This document shows positions 1,867 through 38,126 of a stretch of DNA of 60,812 nt, one piece after another. A program made the translations under genes and the position numbers. Source of the stretch: Eubacteriales bacterium (lineage in GTDB: Bacteria; Bacillota; Clostridia; Lachnospirales; Lachnospiraceae); NCBI GenBank assembly GCA_030524745.1, contig JAUNGC010000024.1:1-60812 (forward strand), read 5' to 3'. The notes under the pieces were generated by a model. The model was given only the letters and a program-made list of their open reading frames with translations. It was not told the origin of the DNA and searched no databases. Within the stretch, counting starts at the first letter, position 1; each line of letters opens with the position of its first letter.

Positions 1867-4800
1867 TTATCCGCCGATCTGACTCAGGATGTAGGGATCC
1901 TTTATTTTTTTATCCTGCGCAAAGAGCAGAATCTTCGACATGATCTCCGCCGTTTTGGGATCCTCATCCAGAAACGGCAAAAAGATTTTTCCTCTGGACT
2001 GGCTGTGCACCGGCAGCACATTGATCTGATGCCCGCCGAGTTGATGAATCACGCCGCTGCCCAGATGGATGCTATATCGCGCCCTGCTGCCCTCGATGAT
2101 GGCATGACTTTTCTCAAAGGTGACATTTTTCAGCCCGAACAGTTCCACATTAAACTGCGCGATCACCCTGCGCATTTCCACTGTGGAATGGCTGGTCTCC
2201 GGGTCCACGCCGCCCGCATGAGCGACGCTGACCGCCAGATCCACATCCCGCATCACCTCGGAATAAATGATGTCCGGCACCTCCCGGATTTTCATCTGCC
2301 GAAAGGTCTTGCGGTCATAGAACACCACATATTCCAGCGTCGGCGCTTCCACGTCCGCAGGTGAAAACCAGTCCGCCAGCGCATAAATTCCCGCAATAAT
2401 ATTTTCTTTATAATAAATCTTCTGCAAGCCCTCTTCCACATCCGCGATCCAGCGGCGTCCTTTTAAGCATGCCGCCGTTTTCTGGGGCTGAATCTGATTT
2501 CCCGCAAACATCAGGGAAACCTCTTTCTCCTGTTCCTCCGAAAGCTTCACATACAACTCCCGGAACACCTGCTTGAAGGGCTGACGGACATTTTCTCTTT
2601 GGCACAGATCGAAGAAATACCGCTGGAACGCGGGCCATTTGCCGGACCGGTACAGATCCCAGGGATGCGCCACCCGAAGAAGCGCGCCCTCGTCCAGTTC
2701 CTTCTCCGCCGGCACACCGTCAGCCTGCTGCGCTGGCTCTGTCAGTCCGCTTTTTGTCAGCAGGCCGATCCCCTGATCACAGACCCAGACCAGTCTTTCC
2801 AGAATCGCTTTTGCCACCGGATTTTCACACAGCTTCCGCAGTTCTCCGAAAGAATAGGCTTCGCTTTCTTCCATGCCCTGCTCAAACATTTTCACCGTTC
2901 TGGAATACTGCTGTTTCAGCTTCTTTTTAAATTCGGAAATCGCCAGAACCTCTTCGTTTTTCTTCAGCGCCGCGGGCACGGCCTTCTGCTTTTTGCTGCC
3001 TTTTGCAATCTCCAGCCCGGCGCTGCCCGACGCGTCGATCACAATTTTAAAGCAATACTCTCCGACCGTAATTCCTTCCAGATAATGCGCGTTCGCTTTT
3101 ACCAACTGCGTTTCCATGGCGAGGGTCAGCCGGGTCACATCCGAATAGCCCGCTGCGGTGGCCAGATTTTTCATCGCCATTTCCACCGCGCGCCCCTCGC
3201 TGGAGCGCCGCTGCGCGCCGAACTGCCTGCTTTCCTTTAAGAATTTCTGCAAAAACTCATACCGGCGCAGAATATCTTCCGTCCCCTTCACGGGCACGAC
3301 GCCGTAACTCATGAGCGTGTCCTTATTTCTTTTCTCAGCAATGGCTTCTTCCAGTTGGTCAAGACCGACCCTCTCCAGCGCCGCGTCCGCATATTTTCTG
3401 GCTCTGGAATGCTTGCTTCCGTCCGAAATATACTTCGCCGCGTTGTAAAGCCTGTGAAAACGCGCTTCCCCAAGTTCCCGGTAGGCGTCCCAAAACCAGT
3501 CCACATCAAAGGCGCCGTCGTTTAACTCCTCCTTTGTCAGCGGCGTATATTTTGCGATCATCGCCGCCTTCCGGTCGTCAAAGCGCTCATTCATATGGGC
3601 CATAAAATAATAACAGCCGGACTTCAATCCGTTCCAGCCCAGATATCCTTCCACGATATCCAGCCACTGCGGCGCATACATCGCCGTCTCGATCAGCCGC
3701 TCCTCCCGGATGCCGCTGCCCTTTAACAATTCGGCCAGCCTTTCGGAAGAGTCTTCCTTATCCGGCCAGCAAGCCTGCAGCAAATGACTTAAGCATTCCC
3801 GTTTTCCGTCTGAACGCCCGTAAAAGCCATAATAAGTTTTCCGGTCCAGGGAATCTTTTCCCAGCGCCGTCAAAATGGCGATCAGCCGCTTTCCCCCGTA
3901 AATTCTCCGGATCGCGCAGATGCTGTCCGAAAAAACGGTGGGCGAATCGCCGCGCTTTAATTCCACATCCAGTATCGTGTCCACAATCCGTAAATAGAAA
4001 TCGGTTCCCGCTTTAAAAACAGGGCTTTCCGGATCAACCTCTCCATCCGTCAAAAACGCCCTGTACTGCGTTTTTTCATACGGAAACAGCTTTTCCTTCA
4101 TCAAAATACCGAGCTGGTTTACCGCAGCCCGCAGGCCAATCACATCAAAAGCGGCATGATAAACGCTGTCCGCTTCGATCAGGCCCAGCGTATAAGCTTT
4201 CGCATAATCCGCCATGGTCAGCTTTGTCTCGCTGCCGGTTCCTCCATAAACGGCATAAGTGACGCCGGTCCTGTTTTTTTGCCCGCCGCAAAAGCCAAAC
4301 CTCTGATCCAGCCGGCAGTAAAGCCAGAACATTTCTTCAAATTCCCGGTCGTCCTTCCATTTTGCAACAGCATCCACCAGCTTATTCACTTTTGACGGGT
4401 ACAGAAAAGAACGTTTCGGTTCCGACCTGCCGCTGTAGGTCCCCCGGGCCGTCTGATACCAGAGCGCCTCGTTTGGCATTTCCTGCGTGATATATAAAAT
4501 CGCCTGTTTTGCGACATTTTCCGGAACGGGTTCCGGTTCCATGCTGCGCATAATTTCCAGCACCGTCAGAAGCGTGCTTCCCCAGAGTCCGTTCTGCGCA
4601 TATTTGCGGTCCGGCAGAGCATACCCTGACAAATCGGAAAACAGCTTCTTTTCATAGACTGCATAGAGCGCAACGTTCTCGATGCTCTGCGGCTGCATGC
4701 CCGGCAGGACCGCGAAATACAGATTCCATAAGACCTGCGGCGTTTTGATCCAGGTATCATAAAACTCCCGCCACAATTCGGGAAAAGGGTAACATTCATA

Positions 4801-34026: not shown

Positions 34027-34920
34027 TCACAACTTCTTTAAATAATGTCCGACCACCGTCACGCCTTCATTCATCACGATAAACGCCTGTGGATCATATT
34101 TCAGTACGATCTGCTTTAATCGGGCAACCTCATATTTTGAAATCAGAATAAAGAGCATATTAGACTTCTCATTCGTATAAGCCCCGGTACTGTCCAAACG
34201 CGTGATACCGCGGTTTAATTCCCTGAAAATCTCTCCTTCCAGTTCACGGTCGTCCTTCTTCGTGATGATCTGTACCTGCACATTGATATTTTGTGAATGC
34301 ACGCGGTCTACAGAGGCGGAACTGACAGCCGCATAGATCAGAGAGTAAATTACCGTACTGACGTCGAACAGGAACAGACAAATCCCGTATAATACCGCAT
34401 TCGCAATCAGATTCACCCTTCCCACGCTGATATTCTGTTTCCACTTGATCAGCAGCATTCCCACAATATCCATGCCTCCCAGCGAACCGCCATTGCGCAG
34501 CGCAACGCCCATGCCGAAACCGCACGCGATCGCGCCGATCACGCTGTTCGCCAAAATATCGTCCGGAAGCAACGGCGCTGACGGGACCGGAATGACGGAT
34601 AAAAATACAGTGGTCGCCGTAACACAAATAACGGTTTTTGCAAAAAACTGCTTGCCGATGTCCTTCATCGCCAGAAGCATCACCGGAATATTAACCGCAT
34701 AATAAATCAAACCGGCGATATCAAAATTGTGTAACGGCAGATGCAGATAATTGACAAGCAGGGTACGAATCACCTGCGCCGCGCCCATCATTCCACCGCT
34801 GTAAAGCCCGGCCGGAACGATAAACAGATTGACCCCTGCCGAATAAACCAAAGCGCCTCCCAGCGCAACGCCAAGACGCTTCCCCTCTCCCGTAAGTTGT
34901 TTCCTGCTGATTGTACGCAT
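34027..34920 (-). CDS. YitT family membrane protein
   Basis: 297 residues from the ATG at 34920 (GGGGAGG upstream). The N-terminal about 205 residues form the five-helix YitT (DUF161) membrane domain (ALGGALVYSAGVNLFIVPAG, YSGGMMGAAQ, SLGGMDIVGMLL); the C-terminal about 80 residues are the cytoplasmic DUF2179 domain (MLFILISKYEVARLKQIVLKYDP, key residues only). Members are putative transporters or sensors; substrate unknown. Stands alone. Confidence 0.9.
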   Translation of the reverse strand: MRTISRKQLTGEGKRLGVALGGALVYSAGVNLFIVPAGLYSGGMMGAAQVIRTLLVNYLHLPLHNFDIAGLIYYAVNIPVMLLAMKDIGKQFFAKTVICVTATTVFLSVIPVPSAPLLPDDILANSVIGAIACGFGMGVALRNGGSLGGMDIVGMLLIKWKQNISVGRVNLIANAVLYGICLFLFDVSTVIYSLIYAAVSSASVDRVHSQNINVQVQIITKKDDRELEGEIFRELNRGITRLDSTGAYTNEKSNMLFILISKYEVARLKQIVLKYDPQAFIVMNEGVTVVGHYLKKL

Positions 34921-35029
34921 AAAGATCCTCCCCTTTTCCAAACGATATGACCGCGTTCATAACAGAACCGTCATCCATTTCTTCCCCTGTTATCATTTTA
35001 CTATGGAGAATCTTTACTTTCAACAGGAT

Positions 35030-36415
35030 TTATTGGGATTTCTGATTCTTTGCGCGTCTGCCGCCATCCTGCGCCCAGATCCGGTCCGCCGTTTCCTGCC
35101 AGCACGCAGCATAAGCTGTGCATTTTTGGCACAGATGCTCCGGGGATTCCGGCGACTGCATATCCGTGGACTTCGCTCCGGTGCGCGCTACCAGTTCTTG
35201 CAGGCATTCCGGATTTTCCAGCATCGGGCAGGGGCGAAGATGATTGCTGTTAAACGGCTGTTCCTTCTGATACTCCAAAAAAAGCGGCTGCTGCAGACAT
35301 TCCAGCAGACTCTTCTCATGGATATTCGCGCCCGAATAATGGATGAACACGCATGGCTCCACATCGCCGTTGGGATTGATATGACAGTAAAACCGGCCGC
35401 CCGCAATACAGCCTCCCACAAATTCTCCGTCATTCTGGAAATCAAAAGCAAAGATCTGCTTTCCGCCCTCCATGGCACGGATTTCGCGCACTCTGTGATA
35501 CATATATTCTCTCTGCGCCCTTGTCGGCAGAAGATCGGGCGCCGCATCGTTTCCAACGGGCATATAATGGAAATACCAGGTGAACCGGCAGCCTTTTTCG
35601 ATAATCATGTCCAGAAATTCATCAGAGGTCACGACCTCCACATTATTTCTCGTATAACAGATGGAAGTTCCAAAAAGCAGCCCCTGTTCCTTCATCAGAT
35701 CCATCGCTTGCAAAACCTTGTGAAAAATACCGTCTCCGCGGCGTCCGTCGTTAGCCTCTTCAAAGCCCTCCAGCGACAGCGAAAAGGAGAGATTCCCCAC
35801 CCGGCGCACTTCCTTACAGAAAGCCTCGTCAATCAGTGTACCGTTTGTAAATGCGTGGAATGCGCAGTCCCTGTGTTTCTCACACAGTCTGATGATGTCC
35901 GCCTTGCGCACCAGCGGTTCCCCGCCGGTCATCATATAAAAATGAATGCCCAGTTCCTTTCCCTGCGTGATGATGGAATCCATGTCTTCAAAACTCAGAT
36001 TCATCCGGTTTCCATACTCCGCCGCCCAGCATCCGGTACAATGCAGATTACATGCGCTGGTAGGGTCCATCAAAATGATCCATGGAATCTGGCAGCCGTA
36101 CTTTTCCGGCGCTTTCCGTGTCTTCTTAAAGCCGGAAAAACCGGCTTCAAACCCAAGATTCAGCGCGTTCATCTTTACCACGTTGGGGTCCAGTTCGTCC
36201 AGCGCCCGGTTCACATACTGCATCCATTTCCCGTTTTCTGCGATCAGCTTTCTTGCCCCCTCGAATACGGCCGGCTGAAAAGTATCTCCCAGAAATTTTT
36301 CCGACAAATCCACCAGCGTCAGCAGATTCTTTTCCCGGTCCTTATTCACATATTTCAAAGTGCCGTCGATCGCAGCGCCAAAGGTCGCCCTTGTTGCCGC
36401 ATGTTTTACATCCAT
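35030..36415 (-). CDS. Radical SAM / SPASM-type enzyme
   Basis: 461 residues from the ATG at 36415 (GGGAGG 9 bases upstream; the longer frame has no site). After an N-terminal helical domain of about 110 residues comes the radical SAM core with Cys122-x3-Cys126-x2-Cys129 (SACNLHCTGC), the GGEP motif (MTGGEPLV) and a SPASM-like C-terminus: CIAGGRFYCHINPNGDVEPC, then HLCQKCTAYAAC. Expect one [4Fe-4S] in the core and one or two auxiliary clusters. SPASM enzymes often modify peptides or proteins; no obvious peptide substrate gene is adjacent. It is divergent from a colinear homologue that lacks the cysteine loop, and the shared region carries palindromes. Confidence 0.9.
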   Translation of the reverse strand: MDVKHAATRATFGAAIDGTLKYVNKDREKNLLTLVDLSEKFLGDTFQPAVFEGARKLIAENGKWMQYVNRALDELDPNVVKMNALNLGFEAGFSGFKKTRKAPEKYGCQIPWIILMDPTSACNLHCTGCWAAEYGNRMNLSFEDMDSIITQGKELGIHFYMMTGGEPLVRKADIIRLCEKHRDCAFHAFTNGTLIDEAFCKEVRRVGNLSFSLSLEGFEEANDGRRGDGIFHKVLQAMDLMKEQGLLFGTSICYTRNNVEVVTSDEFLDMIIEKGCRFTWYFHYMPVGNDAAPDLLPTRAQREYMYHRVREIRAMEGGKQIFAFDFQNDGEFVGGCIAGGRFYCHINPNGDVEPCVFIHYSGANIHEKSLLECLQQPLFLEYQKEQPFNSNHLRPCPMLENPECLQELVARTGAKSTDMQSPESPEHLCQKCTAYAACWQETADRIWAQDGGRRAKNQKSQ

Positions 36416-36520
36416 TGTACATTTCCTCCCGTTTTTCATTTGAGTAACAGTGACGCATTCCTGATTTGCTCCCATTTTAACGGAAAGAAATTTATACTTC
36501 ACCGGTCAGAAATTTTTTCC

Positions 36521-36537
36521 TGTCCCAAATTTGGACA
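36521..36537. promoter_or_regulatory. Operator-like palindrome 1 in the divergent radical SAM region
   Basis: TGTCCCAAATTTGGACA, a near-perfect palindrome around AAATTT (one extra base). Same TGTCC/GGACA element as the second palindrome 23 bases away. Confidence 0.6.
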
Positions 36538-36559
36538 AAACCGGATTTTGTTACTTTTT

Positions 36560-36583
36560 GGGACAAAAAGAAAACTTTGTCCC
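36560..36583. promoter_or_regulatory. Operator-like palindrome 2 in the divergent radical SAM region
   Basis: GGGACAAA (36560-36567), 8-base spacer, TTTGTCCC (36576-36583): a perfect inverted repeat just upstream of the promoter region of the gene at 36640. Probable binding site for the TetR regulator encoded downstream. Confidence 0.7.
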
Positions 36584-36639
36584 TTTTTTTCAGAATACAT
36601 GGTATTATAGAATGTATATAAACTGACAGGAGGCCCACA

Positions 36640-37551
36640 ATGAACAGACAGGATGTTACCAGAGCGCTGATCGAACTGGCTGTCGACCAGGGCATTAAAA
36701 ATATGCAGGCGGATTCGCACAGATCTGTCCGCAGAATGGCGGATCTCGGAAAACAGTTTGCCAGGGGACGCTTTCAAACAGAAATTTTTTCCCTGTTTCA
36801 ACGGCTTCTGGCCCGGGAAGACAGTCCTTATTATGATATGATCGACCGGCTTCTGGCCAACACAGAAATCGCCGCAGTCAAACGCTTCGGCATTAATGCT
36901 GCCTACAACGGCTGGACCTACGGCGCTTCCCTGCTGCGTCAAAGAAAAGCAGAAACGGGAATCGAACTTCCCTGGCTTCTCACATTTTCATGGAACCCCT
37001 GCGCGAACGGCGCTCTGACCCTGCAGGATATTTCTTCCCTTATTACTGAAAACAGAAAAAACGGAACATATTGCTACGCTATCCGGGTCCGCGAATCTCT
37101 CCTGGACGACGTTTCCATATTCCGGCTGTCTGAAAAATTTCCGGACTGCGTCTTTGTGCTGGATCTTTCCGATACGGACTGCCATTTCACCGAAAGGCAG
37201 CTTTCGGAAGTAAAGAATTGCGCCAATCTGATGACGCTGCTCCCCTGCGAATCGCCAGGCTGCGAAAGGCTTGCGTCAGAACTGCTGAAGCAAAAATCAT
37301 TGTTCGCGGTTTCCTGCCATTATCAGGAGGAAAACATTGACGGCAGCTTCGCTGAAGGACTTGTGGAAAAACTTCTCTCTTACGGCAGCGTCATAATATG
37401 CCTGATTTCCGGGAAACGCTGTTCCGCCGAAAGCAGAAAAAAAGCCGCCGACTTTGTCTTAAACGCCAGGATGGAACAAAAATTCCCCGCGATTCTTCTG
37501 GAATGGAATTCCGACGTAGAAAGAGTCAATCAGATCATTTACCATGAATGA
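36640..37551 (+). CDS. Radical SAM-like protein without the Fe-S cysteine loop
   Basis: 303 residues, ATG with CAGGAGG upstream. It aligns with the divergent radical SAM enzyme without gaps over the first about 112 residues: LGKQF against LSEKF, Val80-Lys81 in both, Pro111-Trp112 in both (ELPWLL against QIPWII). The segment after that, NPCANGALTLQDISSLITE, matches TSAC...MNLSFEDMDSIITQ with about 14 residues deleted, taking out the CxxxCxxC loop. No GGEP motif and no SPASM cysteines remain. So it cannot bind the SAM-cleaving cluster and is probably a partner, substrate carrier or regulator of the active enzyme. It ends 15 bases before the convergent tetR gene. Function unknown. Confidence 0.75.
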   Translation: MNRQDVTRALIELAVDQGIKNMQADSHRSVRRMADLGKQFARGRFQTEIFSLFQRLLAREDSPYYDMIDRLLANTEIAAVKRFGINAAYNGWTYGASLLRQRKAETGIELPWLLTFSWNPCANGALTLQDISSLITENRKNGTYCYAIRVRESLLDDVSIFRLSEKFPDCVFVLDLSDTDCHFTERQLSEVKNCANLMTLLPCESPGCERLASELLKQKSLFAVSCHYQEENIDGSFAEGLVEKLLSYGSVIICLISGKRCSAESRKKAADFVLNARMEQKFPAILLEWNSDVERVNQIIYHE

Positions 37552-37565
37552 AATTGAAATTCTTT

Positions 37566-38126
37566 TTATTCCGGCCGCTGCTCCTTCTGCGCATCGTCTA
37601 TCACCTTCCTGGCCAACACGATGATGATTTCATGAAGATCCTCCAGAAATTCATCCGGTCCAATCCGCGTTCCTTCTTTCAGCCACCGCATAATCGCCGT
37701 AAGAAAACCGTCGCAGAAAAAAGTCACATAAAAATCCTTTTTTCCGCTTTCCGCAAAGGCGCTCTGCATATAATATAAAATGACCGGCCGCAGCGTTTCA
37801 AAAAAATATTCCTTAAAGGAATTCTGTCCTTCAATCTGCAGCGCATTCTCATAAAACGTTCTTTCGGCGTAAAAATAGCGGCAGAGATCGTCCAGCAGAC
37901 TCCACTCATTTTTGTAGGAATCCCAGTTGATCCTGCCGATAAAATCCACATAAAAAATCCAGTTCACCAGATCATACTTATCCTTAAAATGATAGTAAAA
38001 GCTTTTCCGATTCATGCCGCAGTCATCGCAAATATCCCCCACGCTGATCCTGGCAAAAGGTTTCTGCGACATCAGCTTCTTCATGGATGCAGCAAGCGCA
38101 TTTTTTGTAATATTGGATTCGGGCAT
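37566..38126 (-). CDS. TetR/AcrR family regulator
   Basis: 186 residues from the ATG at 38126 (AGAGGTGA upstream). N-terminal HTH at about 8-55 (ISVGDICDDCGMNRKSFYYHF, then KDKYDLVNWIF), a form typical of the DhaS/TetR_C-type Firmicute regulators. C-terminal helical ligand domain. It is convergent with the cysteine-less radical SAM homologue, and the palindromes between the two radical SAM genes are the likeliest targets. Its own promoter carries no such palindrome. Confidence 0.88.
   Translation of the reverse strand: MPESNITKNALAASMKKLMSQKPFARISVGDICDDCGMNRKSFYYHFKDKYDLVNWIFYVDFIGRINWDSYKNEWSLLDDLCRYFYAERTFYENALQIEGQNSFKEYFFETLRPVILYYMQSAFAESGKKDFYVTFFCDGFLTAIMRWLKEGTRIGPDEFLEDLHEIIIVLARKVIDDAQKEQRPE

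What the first reader, a model, noticed from the sequence alone, without database searches (positions are those of the whole stretch)
35030..38126. Active radical SAM enzyme paired with a dead, colinear homologue and a TetR regulator
The protein at 36640-37551 aligns without gaps to residues 1-112 of the divergent SPASM radical SAM enzyme (Val80-Lys81 and Pro111-Trp112 coincide), then lacks about 14 residues that hold CxxxCxxC, plus GGEP and the SPASM cysteines. A dead partner divergent from its active paralogue under shared palindromes suggests a two-protein modifying system, with the dead member as substrate carrier, inhibitor or adaptor.
Basis: partly seen in the sequence, partly recalled or inferred. 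Interest (0 to 1): 0.82.

Follow-up and report, generated by a model that had tools for sequence, protein, structure and literature searches.

The report
Dead radical-SAM twin in TetR regulon
Next to an ordinary radical SAM enzyme these gut bacteria carry a related protein that has lost the enzyme's iron-sulphur machinery but is kept by selection and apparently switched by the same regulator, so it is probably a working non-enzyme helper rather than a decayed gene.

Summary
The 303-aa protein (36640-37551) is a colinear homologue of the SPASM radical SAM enzyme beside it (25% identity; profile-profile E 1.4e-37) and lacks CxxxCxxC, GGEP and the SPASM cysteines. It belongs to a probably single-origin family in Clostridia (87 distinct loci examined) with no relevant Pfam or NCBIfam match. 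Pair dN/dS is 0.08-0.37, so it is not a pseudogene. The 'shared palindromes' are real: a conserved 17-bp site (TGTTACYTTTTKGGACA), with a second one 28 bp upstream, lies between the divergent genes and also precedes many tetR genes, a Ca-type ATPase and, in three genomes, an unlinked intact enzyme. The tightest partner is the TetR: of 26 genomes with the short gene (393 searched), 25 have this TetR but only 18 the intact enzyme. Two species lack the short gene where a near-identical relative has it, yet keep enzyme, operator and TetR. An obligate two-protein enzyme is therefore unlikely; a non-catalytic binding or adaptor protein in a TetR-linked, perhaps membrane-lipid, regulon fits best. Conservation has shifted from the barrel to the N-terminal helical domain. 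Ligand, contact with enzyme or TetR, and the enzyme's substrate remain unknown.

The parts
35030..36415 (-). Intact SPASM radical SAM enzyme, probable 461-aa form (ORF list gives 490 aa from GTG 36502)
36029..36052 (-). CxxxCxxC cluster motif of the intact enzyme (C151, C155, C158 of the 490-aa ORF)
   Evidence: (invariant in the 33 aligned enzymes)
36640..37551 (+). Short, cluster-less radical SAM homologue, 303 aa
36868..36957 (+). Most conserved helix of the short family (residues 77-106)
36988..37023 (+). Place in the short protein (about residues 117-128) where the cluster-binding loop of the enzyme is missing
37566..38126 (-). TetR-family regulator (PF00440 + PF14278), convergent with the short gene; start probably 38126
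36521..36537 (.). Upstream operator-like palindrome TGTCCCAAATTTGGACA
36549..36565 (.). Conserved 17-bp site TGTTACTTTTTGGGACA (the only site with at most 1 mismatch in the held genome)
36576..36583 (.). TTTGTCCC half-site upstream of the short gene

Best explanation
The 303-aa protein is a pseudoenzyme: a fast-evolving but selected, catalytically dead homologue of SPASM radical SAM enzymes, kept as part of a small regulon of the adjacent TetR. SHOWN by computation: homology, loss of all cluster and SAM motifs, a single branch in the tree, purifying selection, near-strict co-occurrence with this TetR, and a shared operator-like site. INFERRED: that this TetR binds the site; that, when it meets its ligand, enzyme and dead homologue are made together; that the dead protein does no radical chemistry but uses its conserved N-terminal helical domain, with the barrel as scaffold, to bind the substrate or ligand it shares with the enzyme, and presents, sequesters or buffers it (a binding or adaptor protein, not an obligate subunit). 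Neighbours of the enzyme branch (FakB-like DegV, patatin phospholipase) suggest that the substrate is a fatty acid or membrane lipid.
For: Homology and motif loss; no CxxxCxxC in the short protein of any of the 87 distinct loci. One branch: all 39 shorts put into the tree (of 87 loci), SH-aLRT 100. Selection: dN/dS 0.081-0.366 in 47 usable of 48 pairs, against 0.023-0.086 for the linked enzymes in 6 pairs. Conservation moved: short N-domain 0.62 over barrel 0.45; enzyme N-domain 0.66 under barrel 0.83; R28, R31, Q46, S62, G84, R100 conserved in 92-100% of 75 shorts and not shared by the enzymes. TetR: 25 of 26 genomes with the short gene; convergent in 59 of the 60 loci that have it. Site: 47 with at most 1 mismatch in 87 loci against 0, 0, 0 in shuffles; upstream of 29 of 39 linked enzymes and of none of 52 enzyme genes in genomes without the short gene (but see G170 and G259 under evidence against). 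In G015 and G392 it precedes the short gene, the TetR and the enzyme on another contig. DegV in 13 of 42 loci with the enzyme against 1 of 45 without; patatin 10 of 42 against 1 of 45.
Against: G170 and G259 carry TetR, site and enzyme without the short gene. 8 of 26 genomes have the short gene but no intact enzyme, so a substrate shared with that enzyme cannot be general. 27 of 87 loci show no such TetR in the stretch held, and 23 neither TetR nor enzyme, among them five Anaerostipes-like loci with long flanks. Only 39 of 87 short genes and 19 of 60 tetR genes have a site with at most 2 mismatches. Of 18 unlinked enzyme copies examined in short-gene genomes 3 have it, and in one of these (G184) the short gene has none. 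On the tree the enzymes linked to a short gene are scattered (at least 11 changes). The lipid substrate rests on gene neighbours only.
Confidence: 0.42

Rival explanations
1. Dedicated sensor or co-regulator of the TetR: the dead homologue binds the TetR or its ligand and so sets the response; the enzyme is only one of the regulon's targets.
For: Co-occurrence with this TetR is the strictest link (25 of 26 genomes); it holds in 7 of the 8 genomes without the enzyme (G262 is the exception); orientation is nearly fixed (59 of 60); distance matrices correlate best between short and TetR (r 0.78, against 0.69 short-enzyme and 0.56 enzyme-TetR; 34 loci).
Against: 5 of 30 genomes with the TetR lack the short gene, two of them with the site kept. 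Co-inheritance of neighbours alone gives such correlations. 27 of 87 loci show no TetR in the stretch held; in G386 the TetR lies upstream in the same direction and in G410 on another contig.
Confidence: 0.25
2. Obligate pseudo-subunit: enzyme and dead homologue form a heterodimer that modifies a substrate.
For: Divergent shared promoter with operator-like sites; 18 of 26 genomes with the short gene also have the enzyme; enzyme copies on other contigs carry the site in G015, G392 and G184.
Against: 91 of 109 genomes with the enzyme lack the short gene and 8 of 26 the reverse; short gene absent in G170 and G259 with the enzyme still constrained (dN/dS 0.06 against G416).
Confidence: 0.12
3. Independent membrane or lipid-binding protein of the TetR regulon, functionally tied to the Ca-type P-ATPase and other envelope genes rather than to the enzyme.
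For: The site precedes the P-type ATPase in several loci (named); ATPase in 12 of 45 loci without the enzyme and 10 of 42 with it.
Against: No ATPase in the window's locus; 65 of 87 loci show none.
Confidence: 0.15
4. Decaying pseudogene or chance ORF.
For: Motifs lost, fast evolution; one locus (L120) is split into two frames.
Against: Open in many Clostridia, dN/dS 0.08-0.37, AF2 pLDDT 93.3.
Confidence: 0.02

Closest known systems
SPASM radical SAM maturases SkfB and SuiB (by fold)
Catalogued pseudo-SAM proteins (NCBIfam TIGR04347; that they are haloarchaeal is read from the model's short name)
   Same: By its name the same kind of thing: a radical SAM/SPASM homologue without catalysis. The intact enzyme scores E 2.6e-16 to this model, far below its cut-off (59.9 of 525 bits).
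   Different: None of 75 short proteins matches it at E 0.01.
DhaS-type TetR regulators (TIGR02366)
   Same: Window TetR scores 119.6 bits over residues 19-165.
   Different: Below the model's cut-off of 129 bits. I did not look for dha genes.
Tes/Mss membrane-spanning lipid synthases
   Same: Enzymes that couple membrane lipid chains in archaea (Tes) and Clostridia (Mss) (passages of PMC13274423).

Membership tests
Radical SAM superfamily, enzyme (intact 461/490-aa protein) | CxxxCxxC and radical SAM domain | tested here: met
   C151/C155/C158 invariant in the 33 sequences of A3; Pfam 2.6e-17
Radical SAM superfamily, enzyme (intact) | SPASM domain | tested here: met
   Pfam SPASM E 2.3e-05, 25 bits over a cut-off of 21.5
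Radical SAM superfamily, enzyme (short 303-aa protein) | CxxxCxxC | tested here: not met
   absent in the short proteins of the 87 distinct loci; the columns are a gap
Radical SAM superfamily, enzyme (short) | GGEP SAM-binding motif | tested here: not met
   positions 150-153 variable in 75 sequences
Radical SAM superfamily, homology (short) | statistically supported relation to radical SAM proteins | tested here: met
   BLASTP E 1e-17; hhalign 99.95%, E 1.4e-37
Radical SAM superfamily, fold (short) | alpha/beta barrel of radical SAM type | tested here: inconclusive
NCBIfam pseudo-SAM family TIGR04347 | match to the family model | tested here: not met
   0 of 75 members at E 0.01
TetR family (37566-38126) | TetR_N HTH and C-terminal domain | tested here: met
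   PF00440 3.6e-09, PF14278 4.3e-18
DhaS equivalog TIGR02366 | score above curated cut-off | tested here: not met
   119.6 against 129 bits
RiPP maturase system | conserved precursor peptide next to the enzyme | tested here: inconclusive
   784 small ORFs (20-90 aa) within 1.5 kb of enzyme or short gene: similar ones in at most 5 loci; a precursor elsewhere in the genome was not sought
Obligate enzyme-pseudoenzyme pair | neither occurs without the other | tested here: not met
   18 both, 8 short only, 91 enzyme only of 393 genomes

The most novel reading that the evidence does not exclude
A dead radical SAM enzyme has become the dedicated sensory partner of a TetR repressor: it still binds the enzyme's (lipid-like) substrate or product and reports its level to the TetR, which controls both the dead sensor and the live enzyme, and in lineages without the enzyme the sensor controls an ion pump instead.
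Probability: 0.2. Interest if true: 0.8.

Novelty: new variant of a known kind. Interest (0 to 1): 0.58.

Why it matters
Dead members of the radical SAM superfamily seem hardly described: six searches of the held library that asked for them in various words gave no paper whose title or abstract shown treats one; I read none of those papers, and subscription journals are mostly missing from that library. NCBIfam holds at least one model named pseudo-SAM. The family described here occurs in many gut and other Clostridia, is under selection, sits with one regulator and a candidate operator, and offers a natural comparison (G170 and G259 against G416). That makes 'what does a dead radical SAM protein do?' testable by one knock-out and one binding assay, and may point to an unknown envelope or lipid modification.

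Tried and rejected
Pseudogene: rejected by dN/dS and wide conservation. Peptide substrate nearby: no general one found. Identity with the lipid synthases Mss/Tes: the enzyme is SPASM-type and structurally nearer SkfB/SuiB, though Tes appears lower in the list; lipid chemistry stays a guess from neighbours. Matching the short protein to catalogued pseudo-SAM models: none. Fold search: SuiB first, but tied with unrelated TIM barrels, so I rest homology on sequence profiles. The few hits of single members to unrelated models (SIL1, fructose-bisphosphate aldolase, PgrA) were taken as chance. My idea that the site precedes the enzyme only where the short gene is present had to be given up: G170 and G259 have it without the short gene; it seems to follow the TetR. 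Even so, no site with at most 2 mismatches lies in the TetR stretches of G311, G441, G109, G212 and G270, and one of the 52 control enzymes (G264) has a 3-mismatch site.

Limits: the 80 named loci (best 80 of 116 confirmed places) were found with a pattern inside the conserved helix, so conservation of that helix is partly selected for. A2 holds 74 of these 80 plus the window (L071, L087, L095, L100, L109, L120 left out). The site was derived from the same loci on which one search counts it, and its shuffles keep only blocks of two bases. Fisher tests ignore relatedness. The 26 short-gene genomes are the 25 at E at most 1e-60 plus G401 (1.8e-45, 356-aa frame, convergent TetR); G198 (134-aa frame) was dropped. 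The 30 TetR genomes are those at E at most 1e-60; four weaker ones listed at 1e-45 (G055, G372, G212, G270) were dropped, none of them with a short gene. The enzyme cut-off was E 1e-120. Three duplicate loci (L035, L036, L037) were dropped before counts. Many loci are cut by contig ends, so neighbour counts are lower bounds. TetR neighbours are undercounted by the ORF picker (antisense ORFs); searches use a profile. Second enzyme copies of G000, G286 and G326 were not tested for the site.
Full report
1. Observation. The window carries, in order, a SPASM radical SAM enzyme (-), a 303-aa protein (+) and a TetR regulator (-). The 303-aa protein has no Pfam or NCBIfam hit but aligns to the enzyme at 25% over 184 aa, E 1e-17 for the pair, with the 14-residue cluster loop missing. 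The held genome has a second intact paralogue on another contig (52% identical, C30), with no short gene found in the 17 kb held around it. The enzyme most likely starts at ATG 36415, which makes the divergent intergenic region 224 bp.

2. The short family. In 145 related genomes, 10 carry a full-length short homologue (open frames of 309-359 aa, E at most 6.3e-23); the other matches lie in frames of 452-577 aa, save a 148-aa fragment in G008. A profile of these found 116 confirmed places in species genomes, of which the best 80 were returned. Over 87 distinct loci no short protein has CxxxCxxC. Short and enzyme profiles align over 336 columns, probability 99.95, E 1.4e-37; longer members keep a stretch that aligns to the start of the SPASM domain, which the window's copy lacks. 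In a quick tree of 39 shorts and 95 intact proteins the shorts form one side of a branch with SH-aLRT 100, so the loss probably happened once, though the program warns of long branches. The enzymes linked to a short gene do not form one group (at least 11 changes): the linkage was gained or lost repeatedly. None of 75 members matches a relevant Pfam or NCBIfam model.

4. Neighbourhood. In 87 loci the TetR is present in 60, and in 59 of these it is convergent, downstream of the short gene, 47 within 250 nt; the enzyme lies in 42, divergent and upstream in 32. Contig ends cut some loci, so these are lower bounds; 22 loci show neither TetR, nor enzyme, nor ATPase. Enzyme-bearing loci also carry a DegV/FakB-like protein (13 of 42, against 1 of 45) and a patatin-like phospholipase (10 of 42, against 1 of 45); a Ca-type P-ATPase is about equally common in both (10 and 12). 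Enzyme loci in genomes without the short gene show, in part, other TetR_C_8 regulators, an LPG_synthase_TM protein, an Mntp-like protein and MATE-like transporters (the MATE label is recalled from the sequence, no family search was run on it). This points to membrane or lipid work, by context only.

5. Phylogenetic profile. In an even sample of 393 genomes of the order: short gene in 26, this TetR in 30, intact enzyme in 109 (cut-offs under Tried and rejected). Short and TetR together 25 (Fisher p 1.7e-33); short and enzyme 18 (p 6e-6); TetR and enzyme 22 (p 8e-8). The tests ignore kinship. Short without enzyme: 8 genomes. Enzyme without short: 91. TetR without short: 5. In this sample the TetR is mostly convergent and next to the short gene, but in G386 it lies upstream in the same direction, in G286 1.5 kb away and in G410 on another contig.

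6. The site. Words GGACAAA, TGGGACA and TGTCCAA are enriched upstream of short genes and enzymes. The 17-bp site TGTTACYTTTTKGGACA occurs 47 times with at most 1 mismatch in the loci, and 0, 0, 0 times in three shuffled sets (60 against 1, 0, 0 at 2 mismatches; 93 against 11, 9, 10 at 3); it sits in divergent enzyme/short promoters, before tetR and before the P-ATPase. A second palindrome lies 28 bp upstream and a TGTCCC half-site downstream (28 sites aligned). With at most 2 mismatches it precedes 29 of 39 linked enzymes, 39 of 87 short genes and 19 of 60 tetR genes. It precedes none of 33 and none of 19 enzyme genes in genomes without the short gene; two further such genomes, G170 and G259, do have it and two, G311 and G441, do not. 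Genome-wide, with at most 1 mismatch, it occurs once in the window's genome, at this promoter; in 4 of the 15 genomes searched it was not found. In G015 it occurs three times: before tetR/ATPase, before the short gene and about 150 bp before the enzyme on a different contig; in G392 at the same three kinds of place plus one 1-mismatch site elsewhere. In G184 the unlinked enzyme has a perfect site but the short gene has none. Of 18 unlinked enzyme copies examined in short-gene genomes, 3 have a site. That the TetR binds it is inferred.

7. A natural comparison. G170 is 94-96% identical to G416 over the locus, G259 mostly 95% (one 1.2-kb piece 90%), but both lack the short gene; the two BLAST pieces of G170 meet at G416 positions 3000 and 3869. 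Enzyme, site and TetR remain and the enzyme is still constrained (dN/dS 0.06). Because other members of the genus (G231, G286, G326) and other families have the gene in this place, loss is likelier than gain. The short protein is then dispensable for the TetR-linked enzyme in these species, which argues against an obligate subunit.

8. Mechanism. Shown: a dead, selected homologue, tied to one TetR, with tandem operator-like sites in the shared promoter. Inferred: the TetR represses the divergent pair and an inducer releases it; the short protein binds, by its N-terminal domain, a ligand shared with the enzyme, or the TetR itself. I put 0.42 on a non-obligate binding or adaptor role, 0.25 on a TetR co-sensor, 0.15 on an independent envelope role and 0.12 on an obligate heterodimer.

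9. Known or new. Pseudo-SAM proteins as a kind exist in NCBIfam by name (TIGR04347), but this family matches nothing relevant in the libraries searched, and ten searches of the held literature listed no paper that by title or abstract treats it (I saw search listings only, and of PMC13274423 passages). I file it as a new variant of a known kind.

Noticed in passing
L241 and L242 against L218: Short gene absent from two species of genus g127 with enzyme, site and TetR kept, in loci otherwise nearly identical to one that has it: a natural knock-out.
   Followed up: yes
L049, L050, L052, L053, L055: Anaerostipes-like genomes carry a short gene with neither TetR nor enzyme within 8 kb, in a fixed context of an oxidoreductase-, LysR-, alcohol-dehydrogenase- and TRAP-transporter-like gene (labels read from sequence, no family search run).
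   Followed up: no
L080, L089, L094, L095 and L083, L090, L100, L106, L107: Two further groups of short genes with their own fixed neighbours and no TetR or intact enzyme in the stretch held, possibly repurposed again.
   Followed up: no
L120:550-1587: A short gene split into two frames (137 and 200 aa): decay or sequencing error. Left as it is.
   Followed up: no
L127, L128, L130, L135, L137, L141, L144, L158: Enzyme loci without the short gene have recurrent Mntp-like (c4) or LPG_synthase_TM (c5) membrane proteins near the enzyme.
   Followed up: partly
window 34027-34941 and L034: YitT/DUF2179 membrane protein next to the enzyme; in G006 the order YitT-short-TetR is kept but no enzyme is found there, nor at E 1e-40 in that genome; a peptidase-like gene (label from sequence) lies in its place.
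   Followed up: partly
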